Source of the DNA: an uncultured Alphaproteobacteria bacterium
Lineage (GTDB): Bacteria; Pseudomonadota; Alphaproteobacteria; RF32; CAG-239
Reading direction: 5' to 3'
Assembly: GCA_944391725.1 (NCBI GenBank)
Contig: CALXUQ010000009.1
Span: 1 to 41,080 of the forward strand
DNA length: 41,080 bases
Shown: in pieces, positions 5,809-33,811 of the stretch
How positions within the stretch are numbered: position 1 is the first letter of the stretch
Layout: every line of letters starts with the position of its first letter
Made by a program: the position numbers and the translations under genes
Notes under the pieces: generated by a model
Databases searched by the model: none
What the model was told of the DNA's origin: nothing
What the model saw: the letters and a program-made list of their open reading frames with translations, nothing else

Positions 5809-8800
5809 ATGCAGACACCACGCCACATATTTTTACATTTCTGCCGTCAGCTTTGCATCACGGCAGTTGTGGTGTTTATGTGTACTTTTCTGTCCGCCAA
5901 TTTTTCTCAGGCAGTTCCCCTGCCCGAAATAGTTCGGCTCACCCTTCCTCTGTCTGATAATAATGATTATCAAATTGAGCATATTGAAAATCGCTTAATC
6001 ATCTCTTTCACCAGGCCGATTAAGGTTCAAAACGACCTCACCGCATCCATCCCCGACATTTTAGGCAACCAAAACCTATCTGCAGATGGCAAAACACTCA
6101 GTTTTGAAACCTTAATACCGCTCACCATTTCCGGCCGTCGAGCCCCCAATCGGCTCATCATTGAGTTGGTTCCGCAAGATGACTCTAAAAAACACTTAAA
6201 CACCACCAAAGTTGCTCTTGATATTTTCAAACAAGACAACACCTATATTTTTGACTTCAGTTTTCCGCATCGCATATTATACACAATCAATGCCGGTCCC
6301 CGCAAAACCACCTTATACCTCCTCACTCCGGTAGAAATTAATATTAACGGACAAGATAAATACCCCGAGTTTAACAATATCCGCCAACTTTCCAACGCCA
6401 TGGGCGGCATCAACTTTGAAATTCCGTCCCGCCTGCTAAGCACCAATGAAGAAAACGGAAAATTACGTTTGGAAGTTTCCACCCCCGGCGCTCAACCGGC
6501 TGAATTTGATGAAGAAGAAACCGACAGCGGATATTTTTTTGAAGATTCCGTTACCCCGTCTGAGCAAACCATTAGTTTGAGTTTTCCGTGGAACGTCCCG
6601 ACCGGAGCGGCTGTTTTTGAACGGGGCGGCTACTTATGGATAGCTTTTGACCATCGCAAAAAATTAGATCTTGATAGTCTAACCAAGCAAACATCTCCTT
6701 TAGTCAGTGAAATTTTAAACATTCCGCACACTCGAGGCACCATTTTGCGCCTCACCCTAAAAGAACCACTCAACATTGGGGTTCGTCGTGAAGGTTTGTT
6801 GTGGATTATCGACCTTTATAAAGGTTCGGCCCCTGAAAAAATTCACGATTTAGCCATATTCACCCAATACAATGCCAATAAGCAACCCTATTTCTACATT
6901 CCATCTTCTGCCAGTGGGAATGTCCTCTCGGTTGTAGATCCCGAAGTTGGTGACAATATGAACATTGCTCCTTTAGCTGATATTGGCTCCGGTATCAATA
7001 CTCCCTACGACTATCCCGACATGACATTTCTGCACTCTTACCAAGGCTTGGCCTTAGTTCCCAAAACCACCGACTTAAGGATTGAGCGAGGTAACACCGG
7101 CATAGTGATTAGCGCAGACAAACGTGGGCTCAACCTCTCATCGGACCTAGAGACTTTGCGCCGCAAACAATCTTTAGCCCAAGATACCATGCCAAGCGTG
7201 GCCTTTGACTTTGCAGTTTCTCCGCAATTATTGGAAAAACCCTACAACGAGGCATTGGCTCAGCTCAAAAATGACATTGCCACCGTCCCCGCCGAACAAC
7301 AAAACGCGGCCAAACTCAATTTGGCCAAATATTACATTTCCATGGCCATGGGCCCCGAGGCTTTAAGCATCCTAAAAGACTTACAAAATGTCGCCCCCTA
7401 TAAAGACACCGAACAAATGCATACTTTGCTCGGCATTGCCGATTTTCTGACACATCGCTATGCCTCTGCCATTGAGCATTTTTCTTATGGTAATTTGCCC
7501 CAAAACGATGAGGCCATTTTCTGGCGCACGGTATCTTCTGCCGCCTTGGAGCATCGCGCCGAAAACAATGCGATTCTCATTTCGTTTATCTCCCTCACCA
7601 AGAATTATCCGCAAGCCCTCAAAGAGCGCATTGCCTCCATTGCAGCAGCCGCCGCACTGACTGCCGGAGACGACATTTCGGCTCAAAACTTTATAGATAT
7701 CTTAAAGAGTGCTCCATACAAAGACTTGTACCGTCTGGCCGAAATTGATTATCTTGTTGCCATGCGTCGCGCCCTACAAGGTTACCCGCGCAACGCCATC
7801 AAAGAGTTCCGCGAACTTGGGCGCTCTGAAGCCATTAAATACTCGGCTTTAGCTCGATTTGAAGGAGCCAAACTTTCTAATCGGCTGGGCTTTTTACCGG
7901 TAGATAAAACTATTGAAATAATGGAACGACTGCGTTTTGCCTGGAGAGATGAAAAATTCCGGCTCAATTTGTTGCAAACCTTAGCCGAACTCTACATCAA
8001 GAACAACGATTATTACAGCGCCTTACGCAAGCTTAACCAAAGTCTGCCTCTTGAAACCGATGAAGGGCGCCAGCAAACTATGAAACGCATGGTCAATACT
8101 TTTGAAGATATTTATATCAACAATCGGGCTGATAATATGCCTTTGCTCAAATCTTTAGCCTTATACCACGATTTTGAATGGTTAGCCCCCCAGAGCCCGC
8201 ACTATAACGAAATCGTACAAAAACTGGCCGACCGCTTGGTTGCCGTAGACTTATTGCCACGCGCCCAACAACTACTGAGCAAACAGCTCAAATACAGCCG
8301 TCTTTCTCCGCTGGAGCGGAGCAAAACCGGCACCAGACTGGCACTTATTAATTTATTTGAGGGCAATCCCTCTGATGCATTAGAAATTTTAAATCTGACC
8401 GAAACGCCCGATTTGCCGGAGAGCCTAAAGACGCATCGTAAAATCATCCGCGCCAAAACTTTGGCCGAACTTGGTCATACCCAAGAGGCCATCGCACTGC
8501 TTGATGGAGACTTTAGCAAAAATGCCTTATTGATGAAAAGCGAATTTTATTGGAACAACCAAGAATGGGACAAGGCTTCCGACACCATCCGCTATCTGGT
8601 AGAAAAACCCCGTTCTGGTCAACCCTTGTCTGAAGAGCAAATGGAATATATTTTAGACTGGGCTACAGCGCTCAACATGGCCGGCAAAACCACCGTATTG
8701 GTTCGTCTTAGAAACAAGTTTATGCCCTTTTTTAAGGATACCAAATATTATAGCACATTTAGTATCTTAACCAGCAACTTAGAAGATGATAAAGTAGACT

Positions 8801-8907
8801 TAACCGCCGTTAACCAAGCTATCAACGACATTAGCGCGTTTAGAAACTTTACCCGCATATACAACGATTCGCTGCGCAACGGCAGCCTGAGTGAAACCAT
8901 AAACTAA
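5809..8907 (+). CDS. Large exported beta-rich/TPR protein of the flagellar operon
   Basis: This 1032-residue protein has a basic start and a hydrophobic signal segment at about 14-36, ending near SANFSQA. The N-terminal 400 residues are beta-rich. At least three similar blocks can be seen, for example [40 protein letters not shown] and [20 protein letters not shown], which resemble AMIN-like beta modules. From about 480 to 1000 the protein is helical with TPR-like repeats ([60 protein letters not shown]). It begins 10 bases after the motE-like gene and ends 1 base before uvrB. Its function is unknown; a periplasmic scaffold for flagellar assembly or the stator is inferred from context. Similar large TPR proteins occur in Rhodospirillales flagellar clusters. 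Confidence 0.8.
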
Positions 8908-28074: not shown

Positions 28075-28112
28075 TAAAAAAAACACCCCGCAGTTTCAAG
28101 CTGCGGGGTAAT
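28075..28112. terminator. Terminator between deoA and the 890-aa gene
   Basis: A 9-bp perfect stem, ACCCCGCAG with CTGCGGGGT, has a 7-base loop. On the minus strand it is followed by a long T-run, so it clearly ends the 890-aa gene. On the plus strand the tract is poor, so termination of deoA is weaker. Confidence 0.88.
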
Positions 28113-28130: not shown

Positions 28131-30803
28131 TTAGCTCCGAGTGTTGGTACGACGTGGGGCATAAATATCATCTTGATAAGCATTTTTCTTTGCCTCATTG
28201 CCGCCAAGTTCTTGTGCTACATAGGTTTTGTCATCACTTTTACCCATAAAATCATGCACTTCCTGACGGATATAATCATTGCGTTCCAATCCTGTCAATC
28301 CCATAGCATTAGCCTCATTACAAGCCTTATTATACATCATTTCTTGACGCAAAGCTTCAATTTTATTTTGCACGGGCCCTTTGGATTGTTCTTCTGCCAC
28401 ATTTTGCGAAGTTTGAGCTTGTAATTGCTCATGAGCGGCTTGGTTTTCCGGAGTAATTTCCAACTTGCTGGCATCTCCCTCAATCACGGTAATATTTTCC
28501 GGCGTATCTTCGTGAGGAGCATAATCACCCATATAGCCAAAGTCCTCATGGCTCATTCCCCATTTTTTCAAATCTGCCTCATGGCCTTGCATAAACTTCT
28601 GTTCACCTTCCGAGAGTTCAAGCCCCATATTTTGCCGCTCGGTCAAATCGGTATAGACCGCTTCTTGCACTTTCAAGTCCTGAACAGCAAATTGTGCCAA
28701 GGTTGCTTTCAACGATGCCTCATTACCACCGGTCACCATACCATGCTCACCTGGCACTTGGTACAATCCATGCTCATCCGGAGTCAAGCTGGCAAACATC
28801 TTATCCGTCAAAGCCGCATCATTAGCGTTATCGAGGCTCAGATTTCCGGTCACATTGATAATTCCGTCACCATTAATGGCATAATCCATCTTCACCCCGG
28901 CCATATCAATAACGTGAGTTTCACCCACATTTGGAGTATCATTTTCCGCCATTTGCGTCTGGTGGGCCGAATTTTCCTCTGTCACTGATTGTGGCGCGGC
29001 TGCCTGCTCAGCTACCGTCTCGGTTTGTTGTTCTGCCGCTTGGTTATGAGCATCAAATTCACCTCGTTCAAATGCCGCTTGATTAGGGTTATGCCCATAA
29101 ACCGAGGACATATCATTTTCATCAAAATTGCTTTGTGGCGCATTAGTATTTTCCGGCACCACTCTAAACTCTTGCTCCGGTTGCACCTCCAAATAATCGG
29201 GCATACCATTATTATTCAAATCCAAACCGGCATTATCTGCAATCGAGTTTTCGGCCATGGTTTTCAAATCGGTGGTTTCTTCAGCCCCGCCACGCATCAG
29301 ACACGAGGTCAAAAATCCGGTCGCCGCCACCCCGAGCGCCACCACTGCTGCTTTGCGTTGTCCTTTCGGAGATTTGAGCACCGCCCCGATTTTGGGTCCC
29401 AAAGCCAAGCCCATTCCGGCCAAACTCTGCCCATAGCGCATAATTTGTGCTACTTGCCCCAAGTTTTCCGCCCCGCTCATTCCGGGGATTACGGCCGAAA
29501 CCGCCGATAAGGCTACTGCACTTGCTCCGAACAATCCTTCTTTTGATGTCAAAAACTTACCAAAAGTCAAATCTTTGTTTTGGGCTTTCATCTGCTTATA
29601 GGTACTAGACATATTCTTAATACTGGTACCCATCCGGTATGCCGCCAAGGCCGCCATACCGACCGGACCACAAAGCTTCGCCGCCTCGCCCAAAGCATAA
29701 CCTTTGGCAAAACCTAAAGCACTCATACCGAATTGCTTCAAACCGTTCTTAGCCAATTTGTAGTTTTCACCATATTTCTTGGCCCATTTTGCATCTAAAT
29801 CTTTAGCCTTGGCCGCAAATTTTTTCACCCCTTCGGCTGTAGGCGAGCTAAGCTGCCCCAAACGCTCCCCATAAGTGTTGGAAGCCATATACACCGCGGC
29901 CGCCACACCGGCAATGGCATCTTGATTTAGCTTAACTTTTTTGCCTTTCCTTCCCGCCTCTACCAGTTTGCTAAAGCCTTGGGCAATTTTCTCATCATTA
30001 GTATTACCCTTGGACATTTGGTCGGCACTATAAGCCTCAAACAAGACTTCTTGCAAGCTTTCCTTAAGCGAGCCGTCCCAGTCCTCAACCGAAACTCCGT
30101 CTTTTTTGTTAGCCAATTTTTGCATGGCTTTGAGTTTGGCTGCTTCCAGCAATGTCTCTTTGGCTTCGGCTTGTTGGGTCTCATCAAGTTTTTCACGTCC
30201 AAAAGTCGTTGGTTTGCCGCGCACATCAAGCGCCTCCAACATATTGTGAAGTTCTTTCCACTCCGGATCTTGCTTTTCCCCTTCTGCCTTGGGAGCAAAC
30301 GGATCATAATCCCAGAGGGATTCAATGCTTTGCATATTGGCATCAAGATGTTTCGCATCAACATTTTTCAAACCATTTTCGGCATCATACTGAGCCAATG
30401 CCTCGCCCATCATTTTTTTGACATCAGCAACGGTTTCCGGTTTGTTAGTTGCACGAGCAGACAACTTCTCAATTTCGGGAGCTTGTTCGACCAAAGTTGC
30501 GAGTTCAATATTATTTTTGCCTTGAGCGGCTAACACTTCCTGCCCGCGTTCGGACAAATGTTCAAGTTTCATTTCGCAAAGTTTATCAAAATTATCTTTG
30601 CCCTCTGCCGGCACCAGAGCTTCTGCATCCAAAATCTGCTTGGGGCTCAAATGTTCGGCAAGTTTGTTTAAGCCGCTTTCATTCAGCTCGGCATACAGCG
30701 CCGCCATTTTTTCTTGCGACAAATTTTCCAAAAAGCTAAAATCACCCTTCTCAATTGCATGGGTATATTTTTCCAGTTCTGCTTTTTCTAATACTTCAAC
30801 CAT
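28131..30803 (-). CDS. Large protein of unknown function, 890 aa, paralogue of its neighbour
   Basis: I recognise no family. The ATG has GAGGAGC about 8 bases upstream. No signal peptide or N-terminal membrane helix is visible. Residues 1-290 are acidic and helical (MVEVLEKAELEKYTHAIEKG). A hydrophobic Gly/Ala-rich core at about 290-505 has several possible membrane-inserting stretches: QDAIAGVAAAVYMASNTYG, FAKGYALGEAAKLCGPVGMA, FGASAVALSAVSAVIPGMSG and AAVVALGVAATGFLTSC. A DLNNNGMPDYLE motif at about 526-538 resembles a Ca2+-binding dockerin/thrombospondin-3 loop. The C-terminal 350 residues are Gln/Asn/Glu-rich and include a small beta module (MDYAINGDGIINVTGNLSLD, about 635-655). The order N-helical, hydrophobic core and C-module matches the next gene. 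The gene has its own promoter and terminator. Its role is unknown. Confidence 0.85.
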   Translation of the reverse strand: MVEVLEKAELEKYTHAIEKGDFSFLENLSQEKMAALYAELNESGLNKLAEHLSPKQILDAEALVPAEGKDNFDKLCEMKLEHLSERGQEVLAAQGKNNIELATLVEQAPEIEKLSARATNKPETVADVKKMMGEALAQYDAENGLKNVDAKHLDANMQSIESLWDYDPFAPKAEGEKQDPEWKELHNMLEALDVRGKPTTFGREKLDETQQAEAKETLLEAAKLKAMQKLANKKDGVSVEDWDGSLKESLQEVLFEAYSADQMSKGNTNDEKIAQGFSKLVEAGRKGKKVKLNQDAIAGVAAAVYMASNTYGERLGQLSSPTAEGVKKFAAKAKDLDAKWAKKYGENYKLAKNGLKQFGMSALGFAKGYALGEAAKLCGPVGMAALAAYRMGTSIKNMSSTYKQMKAQNKDLTFGKFLTSKEGLFGASAVALSAVSAVIPGMSGAENLGQVAQIMRYGQSLAGMGLALGPKIGAVLKSPKGQRKAAVVALGVAATGFLTSCLMRGGAEETTDLKTMAENSIADNAGLDLNNNGMPDYLEVQPEQEFRVVPENTNAPQSNFDENDMSSVYGHNPNQAAFERGEFDAHNQAAEQQTETVAEQAAAPQSVTEENSAHQTQMAENDTPNVGETHVIDMAGVKMDYAINGDGIINVTGNLSLDNANDAALTDKMFASLTPDEHGLYQVPGEHGMVTGGNEASLKATLAQFAVQDLKVQEAVYTDLTERQNMGLELSEGEQKFMQGHEADLKKWGMSHEDFGYMGDYAPHEDTPENITVIEGDASKLEITPENQAAHEQLQAQTSQNVAEEQSKGPVQNKIEALRQEMMYNKACNEANAMGLTGLERNDYIRQEVHDFMGKSDDKTYVAQELGGNEAKKNAYQDDIYAPRRTNTRS

Positions 30804-30871
30804 TTTTTAGCTCCTCGCGCTGATTCTAGCAACGCTATAGATTACATAACATAAGCTCATTTTAGCAGAAA

Positions 30872-30900
30872 ATTATCCATATTGCAATATGTTTTGTCAA
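30872..30900 (-). promoter_or_regulatory. Strong sigma70-like promoter of the 890-aa gene, palindromic spacer
   Basis: On the minus strand, TTGACA (6 of 6) and GATAAT (5 of 6) are 17 bases apart. The spacer and first -10 base contain CATATTGCAATATG (30878-30891), a perfect 14-bp palindrome. TTTTCCGGAAAA (30901-30912), a perfect 12-bp palindrome, abuts the -35. Both could be repressor or activator sites. Confidence 0.75.
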
Positions 30901-30981
30901 TTTTCCGGAAAATGTAACTTATCATTCACACTTGCGCTTAAGTATATCTCAAAACCCCTAAACTAAAGGTTAATCCAAGCA

Positions 30982-31012
30982 CAAAAAAAACCGGAGCAAT
31001 TTCTTGCTCCGG
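30982..31012 (-). terminator. Terminator of the 899-aa gene
   Basis: The 9-bp stem CCGGAGCAA / TTGCTCCGG with a GAAA-type loop is followed on the minus strand by eight T, 21 bases after the stop at 31033. Confidence 0.92.
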
Positions 31013-31032
31013 CTCTTTTTGGCAGATAAAAC

Positions 31033-33732
31033 TTAGTAGTCTTTGCCGCGTCTGTTGCTGGCCCAATGCTGCAAATTAGCATTTTCCTGAGCCGCCACGG
31101 CAGCACGATGTTGCTCATCGGCCACTTTAGCAATGGCGGATTGTTTATCAAAGTTTTCCGTCAGCGCCAAACCATCATCACGCAACTCAATACCGTGAGC
31201 TTCCAGCTCTTTTGAGTATCCGTTCACCCATTGATCCAAACCATGGATTTTTTCCGGATTCGGATGTACATCGGGATTTTCGGCCAAATCCATATAGACA
31301 CCGGCTTTAGCCACAATCTCCATTGCTTTTTTCTCCGGATCAGCCACATCGGGGAAACCGCGCAACCGATCAGCCAAAGCTTTAGTTCCTTCATCATATT
31401 CCAGTTGAGCATGAGTAACCTTCAAAACACCGTCTTGGAACTGGTAAGAAACCTCGTTTTTGCCTCCGAGTGAAATATCACCGGAATAAACCTCACCCGG
31501 TTTATATTCATAAGAAACATTACGATAATCCTTACCCACCGCTTGCGGAGCTTTTTCACCATCTTCAAAAGCGATAGTCCGCACTTCCGGCTCTGCAACT
31601 GCAACCGGAGTTTCCATCGGCTCCATTTGCGGATCTTGAACATCAACCACCACCGGCTCAACGGTTTCCGGCGCTGTCGGTTTCACTTCCGGCTTAGTTT
31701 CCTGTACTACCGGTTTGGGCTCATGATGAACCTGCGGTTTGGGTTCTTCGCACAGATAATGCCCGCGGTTATCATAAGAGTTCATACCGTTCGCCACATC
31801 TTTTGCAAAATCCGGATGCATCGGTTCCATCTTCATCAGTTCGGACAAACGGGATTCGGCATTACCCTCGCCGCAGCGAATATCTTGAACTTGTTTGAGC
31901 ATTTGTTCAATTTCTTCCACCAGCGGACGTTGGTTCGGCAAGTTCATCTTGCGCATCAAACCAAATTTGTAGCTAAATTCCTCCATGGTATTAATCCCCG
32001 GGAAATCATCCAAATTGATTTTTCCGGCCTTAACCAAGATATCCAAATCTTGCTGTTCGCAGTCTTCCACAAACATATCGGCTCTGCTGGCCCAGAATTT
32101 CAAATCAGCCGTAGTTTCCGGAGCTTTTTCTTGGATTTTGATTTTAGCTTCGCAGTCATTAGCATTAACCGCGCCGTTTTCATCGCAACCACAATCATCA
32201 CCGAGCATTGTCAACAAATCTTTACGGTCTTGCTCACTGATACCCTCAAGCTCAGCCTTAATCTCTGTAGAATCCACCGCTGCAACCTGAGTAGAGTCTG
32301 CCACATTGGTAGAATCATGCGGAGCTTCTCCCGGCATATCAATCAACTTAGCAGTTTTTTCGGCCGCCGTTTCACCATTATTCATCCAATCATGTCCGGC
32401 TCTAAACAAAGCACCGAGAGCAAAACCGAATGCTGAGTTGCCCATACCACGGACAAAAGCCCTCGACCAGCTGGCTTTGGGAGCATTGGTGTTGCCGTTC
32501 GGGTTCGCAGCCGCTGCAGCTTCTGCTTTTGCGTCACGATGATGAATGGCTAACGTATTCAAAATACCCATACCACCGGCAATTGCTCCTCGGGTTGTCA
32601 AGTTGTTCAAGCCCAAAGCACCATAACCGACCACACCGCTGACAATCATATTAACTGCCCCCACCGAGGCTTTAATCACATCAATTTTATTTTGGCTGGC
32701 AAAGGCGCTAAATCCCAAAGTTTGTCCCTTAGCGGCAGCTTGAGCCTTTTCTTTCTTATATTCTTCCAACAGCGGCTTGGTTGAAGTTGCCACGGCATAA
32801 GCGGCATAAACTGCCATTCCGGCCGGAGCCATATGTGCCACTGCCAACATTCCGGCACCAATAGCCATACCGCGAGCCATTTTACCAATAACCGGAGCAA
32901 ACTTGCGAGCCACCTTATAGGCCTTGCCGATAGTTTTATTTTTGCTCAAAGCTTCGTCCCAAGCTTTGAGTTCTTTAGCTGTTGCCTCCGTAATTTTTTC
33001 AACCTGTTTACCGAATTTAGTATCACTAAAAGCAAGTTTGGCTTGCTCTTTGCGGTGTTCAATCCACTCATGAGTAGTTGCGGCATAAGCGGCAATTGCG
33101 TCTACACTGACATCAAGTGTGTTTTTCTTATTGCCTTCGGCTACAAATTTGTTAACCGCTTCTTGAGTTGCAACTTTGGGGTTTGTACCTTCTTTTAGTG
33201 CGGCAGTAGCCGTGGTGGCCATATAGACTGCCACCTGAATTTCATAATTAATGGCATCTTTATATTGTTTTTCGGTCAAACCTTTAACATTGCGGCTTTC
33301 CTCTTTAACTTTGCGAGCCGCAGTATCCATCAAAACTTGCTTGGCATCTTCCGACACATTCAACCAGTCAACCACTTCACGTGCCGACTTAAATTCTTCA
33401 GCTTTGAGGTCAACTTTCCATTTTTCGAGGTTTTCCGAATTTTTTACATATTCTTCGGCACTAACTTTCCAAACCTCGTTTTCCTGATGGATGTTGCGAG
33501 CCATCTCACTAACTTTAGCGTAGTCAGCAATCAGTTGACGTTTAGTTGTCGGCAGTTTATCCATAATTTCTGCCAACACCGCACCGTCCAAATAGTTCAG
33601 TGCATCTACAAATTTACTATCATCAACTTGAGCCAAAACCTTAGCAATCTCGGCCGTATCGGTAACCCGTCCGAGAATGATATCGCTTAATTTCTGGTCC
33701 AACTCACTAACACCATAAGTTGCTTTTGCCAT
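31033..33732 (-). CDS. Large protein of unknown function, 899 aa, paralogue of its neighbour
   Basis: I chose ATG 33732 (899 aa), which has GGGAG 9 bases upstream, over a TTG at 33780. No signal peptide is seen. Residues 1-270 are helical and charged. A hydrophobic core (about 275-450) holds APVIGKMARGMAIGAGMLAV, APAGMAVYAAYAVATSTKPL, SVGAVNMIVSGVVGYGALGL and GMGNSAFGFALGALFRAG. A Cys-containing middle follows (about 500-545, GDDCGCDENG). A Pro/Val/Glu-rich linker spans about 662-717, and the C-terminal module at about 730-860 includes NEVSYQFQDGVLKVTHAQLE. Blocks alike in the 890-aa protein are GMAVYAAYAVATS versus GMAALAAYRMGTS, the following K-rich helix, and the C-terminal beta strand plus helix. 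So the two look paralogous but far diverged. The gene has its own promoter and terminator. Confidence 0.85.
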   Translation of the reverse strand: MAKATYGVSELDQKLSDIILGRVTDTAEIAKVLAQVDDSKFVDALNYLDGAVLAEIMDKLPTTKRQLIADYAKVSEMARNIHQENEVWKVSAEEYVKNSENLEKWKVDLKAEEFKSAREVVDWLNVSEDAKQVLMDTAARKVKEESRNVKGLTEKQYKDAINYEIQVAVYMATTATAALKEGTNPKVATQEAVNKFVAEGNKKNTLDVSVDAIAAYAATTHEWIEHRKEQAKLAFSDTKFGKQVEKITEATAKELKAWDEALSKNKTIGKAYKVARKFAPVIGKMARGMAIGAGMLAVAHMAPAGMAVYAAYAVATSTKPLLEEYKKEKAQAAAKGQTLGFSAFASQNKIDVIKASVGAVNMIVSGVVGYGALGLNNLTTRGAIAGGMGILNTLAIHHRDAKAEAAAAANPNGNTNAPKASWSRAFVRGMGNSAFGFALGALFRAGHDWMNNGETAAEKTAKLIDMPGEAPHDSTNVADSTQVAAVDSTEIKAELEGISEQDRKDLLTMLGDDCGCDENGAVNANDCEAKIKIQEKAPETTADLKFWASRADMFVEDCEQQDLDILVKAGKINLDDFPGINTMEEFSYKFGLMRKMNLPNQRPLVEEIEQMLKQVQDIRCGEGNAESRLSELMKMEPMHPDFAKDVANGMNSYDNRGHYLCEEPKPQVHHEPKPVVQETKPEVKPTAPETVEPVVVDVQDPQMEPMETPVAVAEPEVRTIAFEDGEKAPQAVGKDYRNVSYEYKPGEVYSGDISLGGKNEVSYQFQDGVLKVTHAQLEYDEGTKALADRLRGFPDVADPEKKAMEIVAKAGVYMDLAENPDVHPNPEKIHGLDQWVNGYSKELEAHGIELRDDGLALTENFDKQSAIAKVADEQHRAAVAAQENANLQHWASNRRGKDY

Positions 33733-33782
33733 TTTAAAATCTCCCACACTAGATTTACATTTTGAGGCATAATAACTCAATT

Positions 33783-33811
33783 TTAATATAATTTCAACAA
33801 CTTTTTGTCAA
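33783..33811 (-). promoter_or_regulatory. Candidate promoter of the 899-aa gene
   Basis: On the minus strand, TTGACA (6 of 6) and TATTAA (4 of 6) are 17 bases apart, about 50 bases before the ATG. The sequence TTACATTTT upstream (33839-33847) also occurs before the paralogue's promoter (30909-30917). Confidence 0.5.

What the first reader, a model, noticed from the sequence alone, without database searches (positions are those of the whole stretch)
28131..33732. Adjacent pair of large diverged paralogues of unknown function with a conserved three-part layout
Seen: two neighbouring genes (890 and 899 aa), no signal peptide, each with a charged helical N-terminus, a Gly/Ala-rich hydrophobic core at about residues 280-500, and a C-terminal module with one beta strand and a helical patch. 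Blocks align by eye: GMAALAAYRMGTS with GMAVYAAYAVATS plus the following Lys-rich helix, and MDYAINGDGIINVTGNLSLD with VSYQFQDGVLKVTHAQLE. Between them the sequence has diverged strongly. Inference: an ancient duplication kept as a functional pair, possibly membrane-inserting or secreted (effector, pore or envelope-scaffold like). This is the best candidate for an undescribed system here.
Basis: partly seen in the sequence, partly recalled or inferred. Interest (0 to 1): 0.8.

Follow-up and report, generated by a model that had tools for sequence, protein, structure and literature searches.

The report
Likely type IV secreted protein pair
Two neighbouring genes of an uncultured alphaproteobacterium encode distant copies of a large protein that most genomes of its bacterial family carry and that matches no family in the libraries searched; the proteins are likely cargo of the family's chromosomal type IV secretion machine, predicted to be exported by a basic tail and to act on membranes.

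Summary
In detail: the two genes (890 and 899 aa) are real, diverged paralogues (BLASTP E 1e-10; profile-profile probability 98%). They match nothing above cut-offs in Pfam, NCBIfam, PHROGs, PADLOC or the PDB. Their ~340-residue core defines a family found in 107 of 126 genomes of the same bacterial family; among 385 genomes of the class, outside it only in one sister family. The pair is not one old duplication kept together: the tree suggests three lineages, and the window's upstream gene (B) pairs with different partners in different genera. Relatives share one charge plan: acidic N-half, basic weakly hydrophobic core, acidic C-part, then usually a short basic polar tail. In the sister family the two halves are separate adjacent genes in 8 of 10 loci; 7 of 8 core halves and 1 of 8 acidic halves carry the tail. 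The same genomes carry a chromosomal VirB4/VirB10/VirD4 system, and two relaxase models hit 1 and 0 of 126. Best reading, unproven: type IV secretion substrates recruited by the tail, with a fused chaperone-like half and a membrane-active core. Against it: 12 of 13 genomes without detected VirB4 and VirB10 keep the genes, neighbours are not enriched for tails, and translocation is untested.

The parts
31033..33732 (-). gene B, 899 aa, upstream gene of the pair
   Evidence: 37 homologues; B-type lineage in the tree
33133..33732 (-). B, N-half (about residues 1-200): acidic, helical
   Evidence: charge and break position (computed on the 915-aa upstream-extended ORF, offset 16); model
32365..33132 (-). 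B, basic weakly hydrophobic half of the core (about residues 201-456)
   Evidence: net +13, hydropathy peaks
31162..31584 (-). B, C-terminal alpha/beta module (about residues 717-857)
   Evidence: model; weak profile match to A's module
31036..31080 (-). B, C-terminal tail (last 15 residues, net +2, ends RRGKDY)
28131..30803 (-). gene A, 890 aa, downstream gene of the pair
   Evidence: 25 homologues
29952..30803 (-). A, N-half (residues 1-284): acidic (net -23), helical
29256..29951 (-). A, basic weakly hydrophobic half of the core (residues 285-516, net +20)
28536..28922 (-). A, C-terminal alpha/beta module (about residues 628-756); close relatives carry a possible second diverged copy that A lacks
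28134..28178 (-). A, basic polar C-terminal tail (last 15 residues, net +1; last 8, net +3; ends RRTNTRS), behind a variable linker
30859..30900 (-). promoter-like sites upstream of A (TTGACA-17-GATAAT, 11 of 12, at 30900-30872)
   Evidence: consensus scan; not evidence of function
33769..33797 (-). promoter-like site upstream of B (TTGAAA-17-TATTAT, 10 of 12)
   Evidence: consensus scan
30991..31012 (-). terminator-like stem after B; the scan lists it on the plus strand, but on the minus strand it is followed by eight T
   Evidence: stem, minus-strand sequence read
28084..28110 (-). terminator-like stem after A

Best explanation
The two genes encode paralogous large proteins with an acidic N-half, a basic weakly hydrophobic core and a basic C-terminal tail, which are likely substrates of the family's chromosomal VirB/VirD4-type secretion system, predicted to be recruited by the tail and to insert the core into a target membrane. 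Shown by computation: the paralogy, the family and its spread, the charge plan, the tail, the split form in the sister family, and VirB4-, VirB10- and VirD4-like genes in the own genome. Inferred: the acidic N-half acts as a built-in chaperone for the basic core; the coupling protein VirD4 reads the tail; the target is a neighbouring or host cell. None of these three steps was tested.
For: (1) VirB4 in 105 of 126, VirD4 (PF02534) in 117 of 126 and VirB10 (TrbI) in 102 of 126 genomes of the bacterial family, own genome included. The VirB4 locus also holds a VirB2-like pilin gene (TrbC E 5e-6, just under its cut-off; tested in one genome), large unknown genes and type IVb pilus-like genes. (2) Relaxase models hit 1 of 126 (PF03432) and 0 of 126 (TrwC), so the system does not look conjugative. 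(3) Basic polar tail: 42 of 54 non-redundant members against 41 of 208 other ORFs (p 3e-15); mean net charge of the last 15 residues +1.98, against +0.41 in the others and -0.89 in the same proteins 60 residues upstream. A and B both meet the rule. Not deduplicated: 66 of 97 against 16 of 100 vir-locus ORFs (rule also asking for R or K in the last five). (4) Natural comparison: 8 of 10 fetched loci of sister family f73 have the core split into two adjacent ORFs. By the same rule 7 of 8 core halves and 1 of 8 acidic halves carry the tail (last 8 residues +2.9 against +0.4, p 0.001), whichever comes first. These loci come from 4 genomes and include near copies. (5) Cut at the profile, 98 of 100 members have N-half at -3 or lower, core half at +5 or higher and a negative C-part. 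With the control's own proportional cuts it is 60 of 97 members against 8 of 112 other proteins; near copies not removed. (6) One member lies about 1.8 kb upstream of VirB4 on the same strand (L078). (7) By hydropathy 99 of 100 lack a signal-like N-terminus.
Against: No translocation, binding or membrane insertion was tested. By presence and absence the family does not follow the secretion system: of 13 listed genomes in which neither VirB4 nor VirB10 was found, 12 still have the core gene (12 of 13 also have VirD4, so assembly gaps are possible). In 11 of 12 fetched vir loci no member lies near; the window's pair lies among housekeeping genes. ORFs within two genes of a member are not enriched for tails (37 of 265 against 24 of 204, p 0.58). 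12 of 54 non-redundant members lack the tail by the rule used; A's last 15 residues are only +1 and B's +2. One acidic half of f73 (L192) also meets the tail rule, one core half (L193) does not. Two of the 8 core halves, the long ones, are net negative as whole ORFs. The strict Agrobacterium arginine spacing (recalled) is not met. The models are of low confidence (mean pLDDT 63.7 and 60.2) and match no solved fold at E 0.001. Whether f73 has the secretion system was not searched.
Confidence: 0.45

Rival explanations
1. Lineage-specific inner-membrane or envelope scaffold proteins that are never exported. The basic core and tail hold the protein to anionic lipids or to the nucleoid from the cytoplasmic side.
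For: Common in the bacterial family (107 of 126), also in 12 of 13 listed genomes without detected VirB4 and VirB10; the window's pair and the g9 loci whose neighbours were scanned lie among housekeeping genes; weakly hydrophobic helices.
Against: Strong divergence, differing partners and one to four matches per genome are unusual for a scaffold; a tail that stays at the extreme end while the linker and modules change; in the split form the tail is mostly on one half only.
Confidence: 0.3
2. Accessory parts of the secretion machine or of the adjoining type IVb pilus, not its cargo.
For: One member is encoded about 1.8 kb upstream of VirB4 on the same strand (L078).
Against: 11 of the 12 fetched vir loci hold no member (L075 is only 7 kb); members number one to four per genome and mostly lie on other contigs or far away; few ORFs at the vir loci carry the tail (16 of 100 against 66 of 97).
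Confidence: 0.1
3. Contact-dependent antibacterial pore proteins delivered into competing bacteria.
For: Weakly hydrophobic, Gly/Ala-rich core; secretion systems of this type can kill bacteria (X-T4SS, passage in PMC10025392).
Against: No toxin domain in Pfam, NCBIfam or PADLOC; no small extra gene is kept beside the pair in the own genus (ORFs of 90 aa or more; not tested systematically).
Confidence: 0.08
4. Type III (flagellar) export substrates.
For: The own genus has flagellar export genes (FhiA family, 7 of 7 genomes), and the window itself holds fliL- and fliM-like genes.
Against: 18 of the 20 listed genomes without FhiA still have the core gene.
Confidence: 0.03

Closest known systems
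VirB/VirD4 type IV secretion effectors (Agrobacterium Vir proteins, Bartonella Beps)
   Same: Genome with VirB4-, VirB10- and VirD4-like genes; no signal-like N-terminus; positive charge at the extreme C-terminus, a class of signal described in PMC10025392 (passages seen).
   Different: No sequence relation found, no BID domain hit, no strict Arg spacing; much larger, with their own core; translocation untested.
VirE1-VirE2 (acidic secretion chaperone and its cargo)
   Same: In the sister family an acidic ORF sits 1-14 bases (six loci; once 72, once a 4-base overlap) from the cargo-like half. PMC5389803 (search listing and start of abstract) calls VirE1 an acidic secretion chaperone.
   Different: No sequence relation tested; the acidic half is 221-261 aa; in the window's bacterial family it is fused to the core. 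Binding is inferred.
Weakly hydrophobic type III translocators and alpha-pore proteins (recalled)
   Same: Several weakly hydrophobic helices in an otherwise charged protein without signal peptide.
   Different: No significant sequence or fold match; SmhB pore chains appear only as weak rows.
MgtE N-terminal / FliG-like helical repeats
   Different: Below curated cut-offs and inside the range of chance for helical models.

Membership tests
VirB/VirD4 secretion effectors | genome encodes the transport ATPase, channel scaffold and coupling protein | tested here: met
   own genome: VirB4 G000:C60, VirB10 G000:C17, VirD4-like G000:C45 (395-aa open frame)
VirB/VirD4 secretion effectors | positively charged C-terminal signal | tested here: met
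   42 of 54 against 41 of 208 ORFs; net +1.98 against +0.41; A +1 and B +2 in the last 15 residues
VirB/VirD4 secretion effectors | strict Agrobacterium spacing of arginines in the tail (recalled) | tested here: not met
   tails of A (RRTNTRS) and B (RRGKDY) read by eye
VirB/VirD4 secretion effectors | delivery into a target cell | not testable with these tools
   needs an experiment
Bartonella Bep effectors | BID domain | tested here: not met
   no such hit for A or B in Pfam or NCBIfam; that these libraries hold a BID model is recalled
Conjugative type IV system and its relaxase cargo | relaxase in the genome | tested here: not met
   PF03432 1 of 126, PF08751 0 of 126 genomes, own genome none; other relaxase families not searched
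VirE1-like acidic chaperone and cargo | small acidic gene next to the cargo gene | tested here: met
   8 of 10 fetched loci of sister family f73, acidic ORF net -10 to -25; in the window the halves are fused
VirE1-like acidic chaperone and cargo | binds the cargo before export | not testable with these tools
   inferred only
MgtE_N / FliG-like repeats | profile or fold match over the domain | tested here: inconclusive
Known phage, defence or solved-structure families | significant profile hit | tested here: not met
   for A and B: PHROGs best E 0.091, PADLOC none, PDB sequences best E 0.043; relatives show only weak hits under cut-offs, e.g. PHROGs E 0.0034 and a TonB model E 5.5e-5 in a Pro-rich stretch

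The most novel reading that the evidence does not exclude
A secretion cargo with its chaperone built in: across a whole family of uncultured Alphaproteobacteria, a lineage-kept, relaxase-free VirB/VirD4 machine exports fast-evolving giant proteins in which an acidic half, still a separate neighbouring gene in the sister family, is fused to the basic membrane-active core it shields, and the tail is the handle by which VirD4 pulls it out. Tandem B-type genes with exchangeable partners would be two-part membrane devices that act together.
Probability: 0.22. Interest if true: 0.82.

Novelty: new variant of a known kind. Interest (0 to 1): 0.6.

Why it matters
If true, most genomes of a family of uncultured Alphaproteobacteria (one related record comes from a roe deer caecum) carry a protein-injecting machine and its own cargo family, which would recast them from bystanders to cells that act on neighbours or host. 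The fused and split forms would give a natural series for how a chaperone is captured by its cargo. Five searches of the held literature library (listings, plus passages of two papers) listed no paper that I recognised as describing this protein family; the searches were broad and most subscription papers are missing.

Full report
The finding names two neighbouring minus-strand genes, A (28131-30803, 890 aa) and B (31033-33732, 899 aa). Both ORFs are there. They are paralogues: BLASTP E 1e-10 over A192-520 and B107-460, and profile-profile 98.1%, E 8.5e-14, 314 columns (profiles of 14 of the 26 A-type and 19 of the 38 B-type proteins in hand). The similar region is the core; N-termini before it are not detectably similar and the C-terminal modules only weakly. 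Between the genes lies a terminator-like stem and then a near-consensus promoter-like site for A, so they look like two transcription units rather than an operon (consensus matches only).

Neither protein has a hit above curated cut-offs in Pfam or NCBIfam, or a significant one in PHROGs, PADLOC or PDB sequences. Protein searches give 25 relatives of A and 37 of B; one bears a given name, 'hypothetical protein'. The two named genome records are 'uncultured Alphaproteobacteria bacterium' (89% identical B) and an Alphaproteobacteria genome from roe deer caecum (45%). The habitat of the window's own genome is not known to me. That genome (1.57 Mb, 78 contigs) shows no further copy at E 0.1 in single-protein searches; with the core profile it has two matches, A and B.

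A profile of the core (27 of 34 core sequences) finds the family in 107 of 126 genomes of the same bacterial family, in 16 of 16 genera, with one to four matches per genome. In 385 genomes drawn from the class, 9 have it: 5 of the own family and 4 of one sister family, f73. So it looks clade-specific within that sample.

In the own genus the pair sits at one conserved place, between a thymidine-phosphorylase-like and an LD-carboxypeptidase-like gene, in 6 of 6 loci examined; a seventh genome, 61% complete, shows one member on a short contig. Over 82 loci I found 100 family ORFs among 602 of 150 aa or more and 21 tandem pairs, each on one strand, with gaps of 74 to 229 bases. A tree of 68 of these 100 core sequences (rows without a genus label or with short cores left out) suggests three lineages. 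B-type genes of the own genus group with the downstream genes of pairs in g8, g9 and g16 (support 98/97); 20 of the 22 rows in that clade are in pairs. A-type genes group, with weaker support, with single genes of other genera. The upstream genes of pairs in g8, g9, g16 and g10 (15 rows) lie in a third lineage, with some single genes. Thus B is the recurrent member of a pair and its partner differs. Several branches are long and their place is unsure.

Members share a charge plan. Cut at the middle and end of the core profile, the N-half is at -3 or lower in 100 of 100 proteins, the core half at +5 or higher in 100 of 100, and the C-part negative in 98 (one search gave the same by aligned rows, 101 rows with one empty). 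This was compared with other proteins by proportional cuts: 8 of 112 proteins of 450 aa or more meet the three-part rule, against 60 of 97 members by those same cuts. Near copies were not removed. The core half holds a median of three weakly hydrophobic stretches, and 99 of 100 proteins lack a hydrophobic N-terminus.

The extreme C-terminus differs from what precedes it. After removal of near copies (97 to 54 members; 392 to 208 other ORFs of the same loci) at least four of the last six residues are G, N, S, T, R or K in 42 of 54 against 41 of 208 (p 3e-15). Net charge of the last 15 residues is +1.98 against +0.41, and -0.89 in the same proteins 60 residues upstream. Not deduplicated, 66 of 97 members against 16 of 100 ORFs of the vir loci carry it. 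A G-R or G-x-R near the end occurs in 38 of 97 members and 19 of 392 others. A and B themselves meet the rule with modest charge, +1 and +2 in the last 15 residues. In A the last residues are kept among relatives that gain or lose whole stretches before them. A negative result: ORFs within two genes of a member are not enriched for such tails (37 of 265 against 24 of 204, p 0.58).

The sister family gives a natural comparison. In 8 of 10 loci fetched (4 genomes, some near copies) the core is made as two adjacent ORFs: an acidic one of 221-261 aa (net -10 to -25) matching the first third of the profile, and one of 259-590 aa matching the rest (net +17 to +26 in six, negative as a whole in the two long ones). 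By the tail rule 7 of 8 core halves and 1 of 8 acidic halves pass; the last 8 residues average +2.9 and +0.4 (p 0.001), also with the three loci where the core half comes first. The other two f73 ORFs are unsplit and run off contig ends. An acidic gene next to a basic, hydrophobic gene resembles a secretion chaperone beside its cargo; the window's proteins would be the fused form. This is inference.

Is there a machine? VirB4 is found in 105 of 126 genomes, VirD4 (PF02534) in 117 and VirB10 (TrbI) in 102, each in the own genome. Profile scans of two loci show, near VirB4, a VirB2-like pilin gene (TrbC E 5e-6, just under cut-off) and PilN-, TcpQ-, PilO- and PilP-like genes, two of them under cut-offs; a 96-aa gene stands where VirB3 would be, a name I give by position only. 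Relaxases of two families are found in 1 and 0 of 126 genomes. In G017 a family member is encoded about 1.8 kb upstream of VirB4 on the same strand (L078); the other 11 fetched vir loci have none. A review states that no consensus fits all type IV signals, but one class is made of clusters of positive residues (PMC10025392, passages).

Against this: of 13 listed genomes in which neither VirB4 nor VirB10 was found, 12 have the core gene (and 12 have VirD4, so gaps in the assemblies are possible). Presence and absence therefore does not tie the family to the machine.

My verdict: real, unnamed, clade-specific family; most likely type IV secretion cargo with a membrane-active core and a fused acidic half (0.45), with an unexported envelope scaffold as the main rival (0.3).

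Noticed in passing
L090-L092 and G000:C17:13902-14474: The VirB10-like TrbI domain sits in very large open frames, mostly about 1,400-1,700 aa, in most genomes where it was found.
   Followed up: no
G048:C43:74650-75225 and G102:C9:6814-7407: The VirB10 match is reported inside open frames of 25,213 and 24,540 residues; masked stretches or an artefact are possible.
   Followed up: no
L050:16179-16874, L050:16904-18397, L051:16717-18864, L147:10241-10939: In genus g9 several unknown ORFs beside the pair, not family members, end in similar G/N/R-rich tails; no Pfam hit for those scanned.
   Followed up: partly
L191:4820-5926: A 368-aa ORF without Pfam hit next to a split pair of sister family f73 ends in KNKNRGR.
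   Followed up: no
window 5809-8907: A 1,032-aa protein with a signal-peptide-like start (by eye), between the fliM side of a flagellar cluster and uvrB, has no Pfam hit at 1e-5.
   Followed up: no
window 28131-30803 against P0003: A relative 98% identical over its matched part is 158 residues longer; the extra stretch looks like a second diverged C-terminal module (probability 55%) that A lacks.
   Followed up: partly
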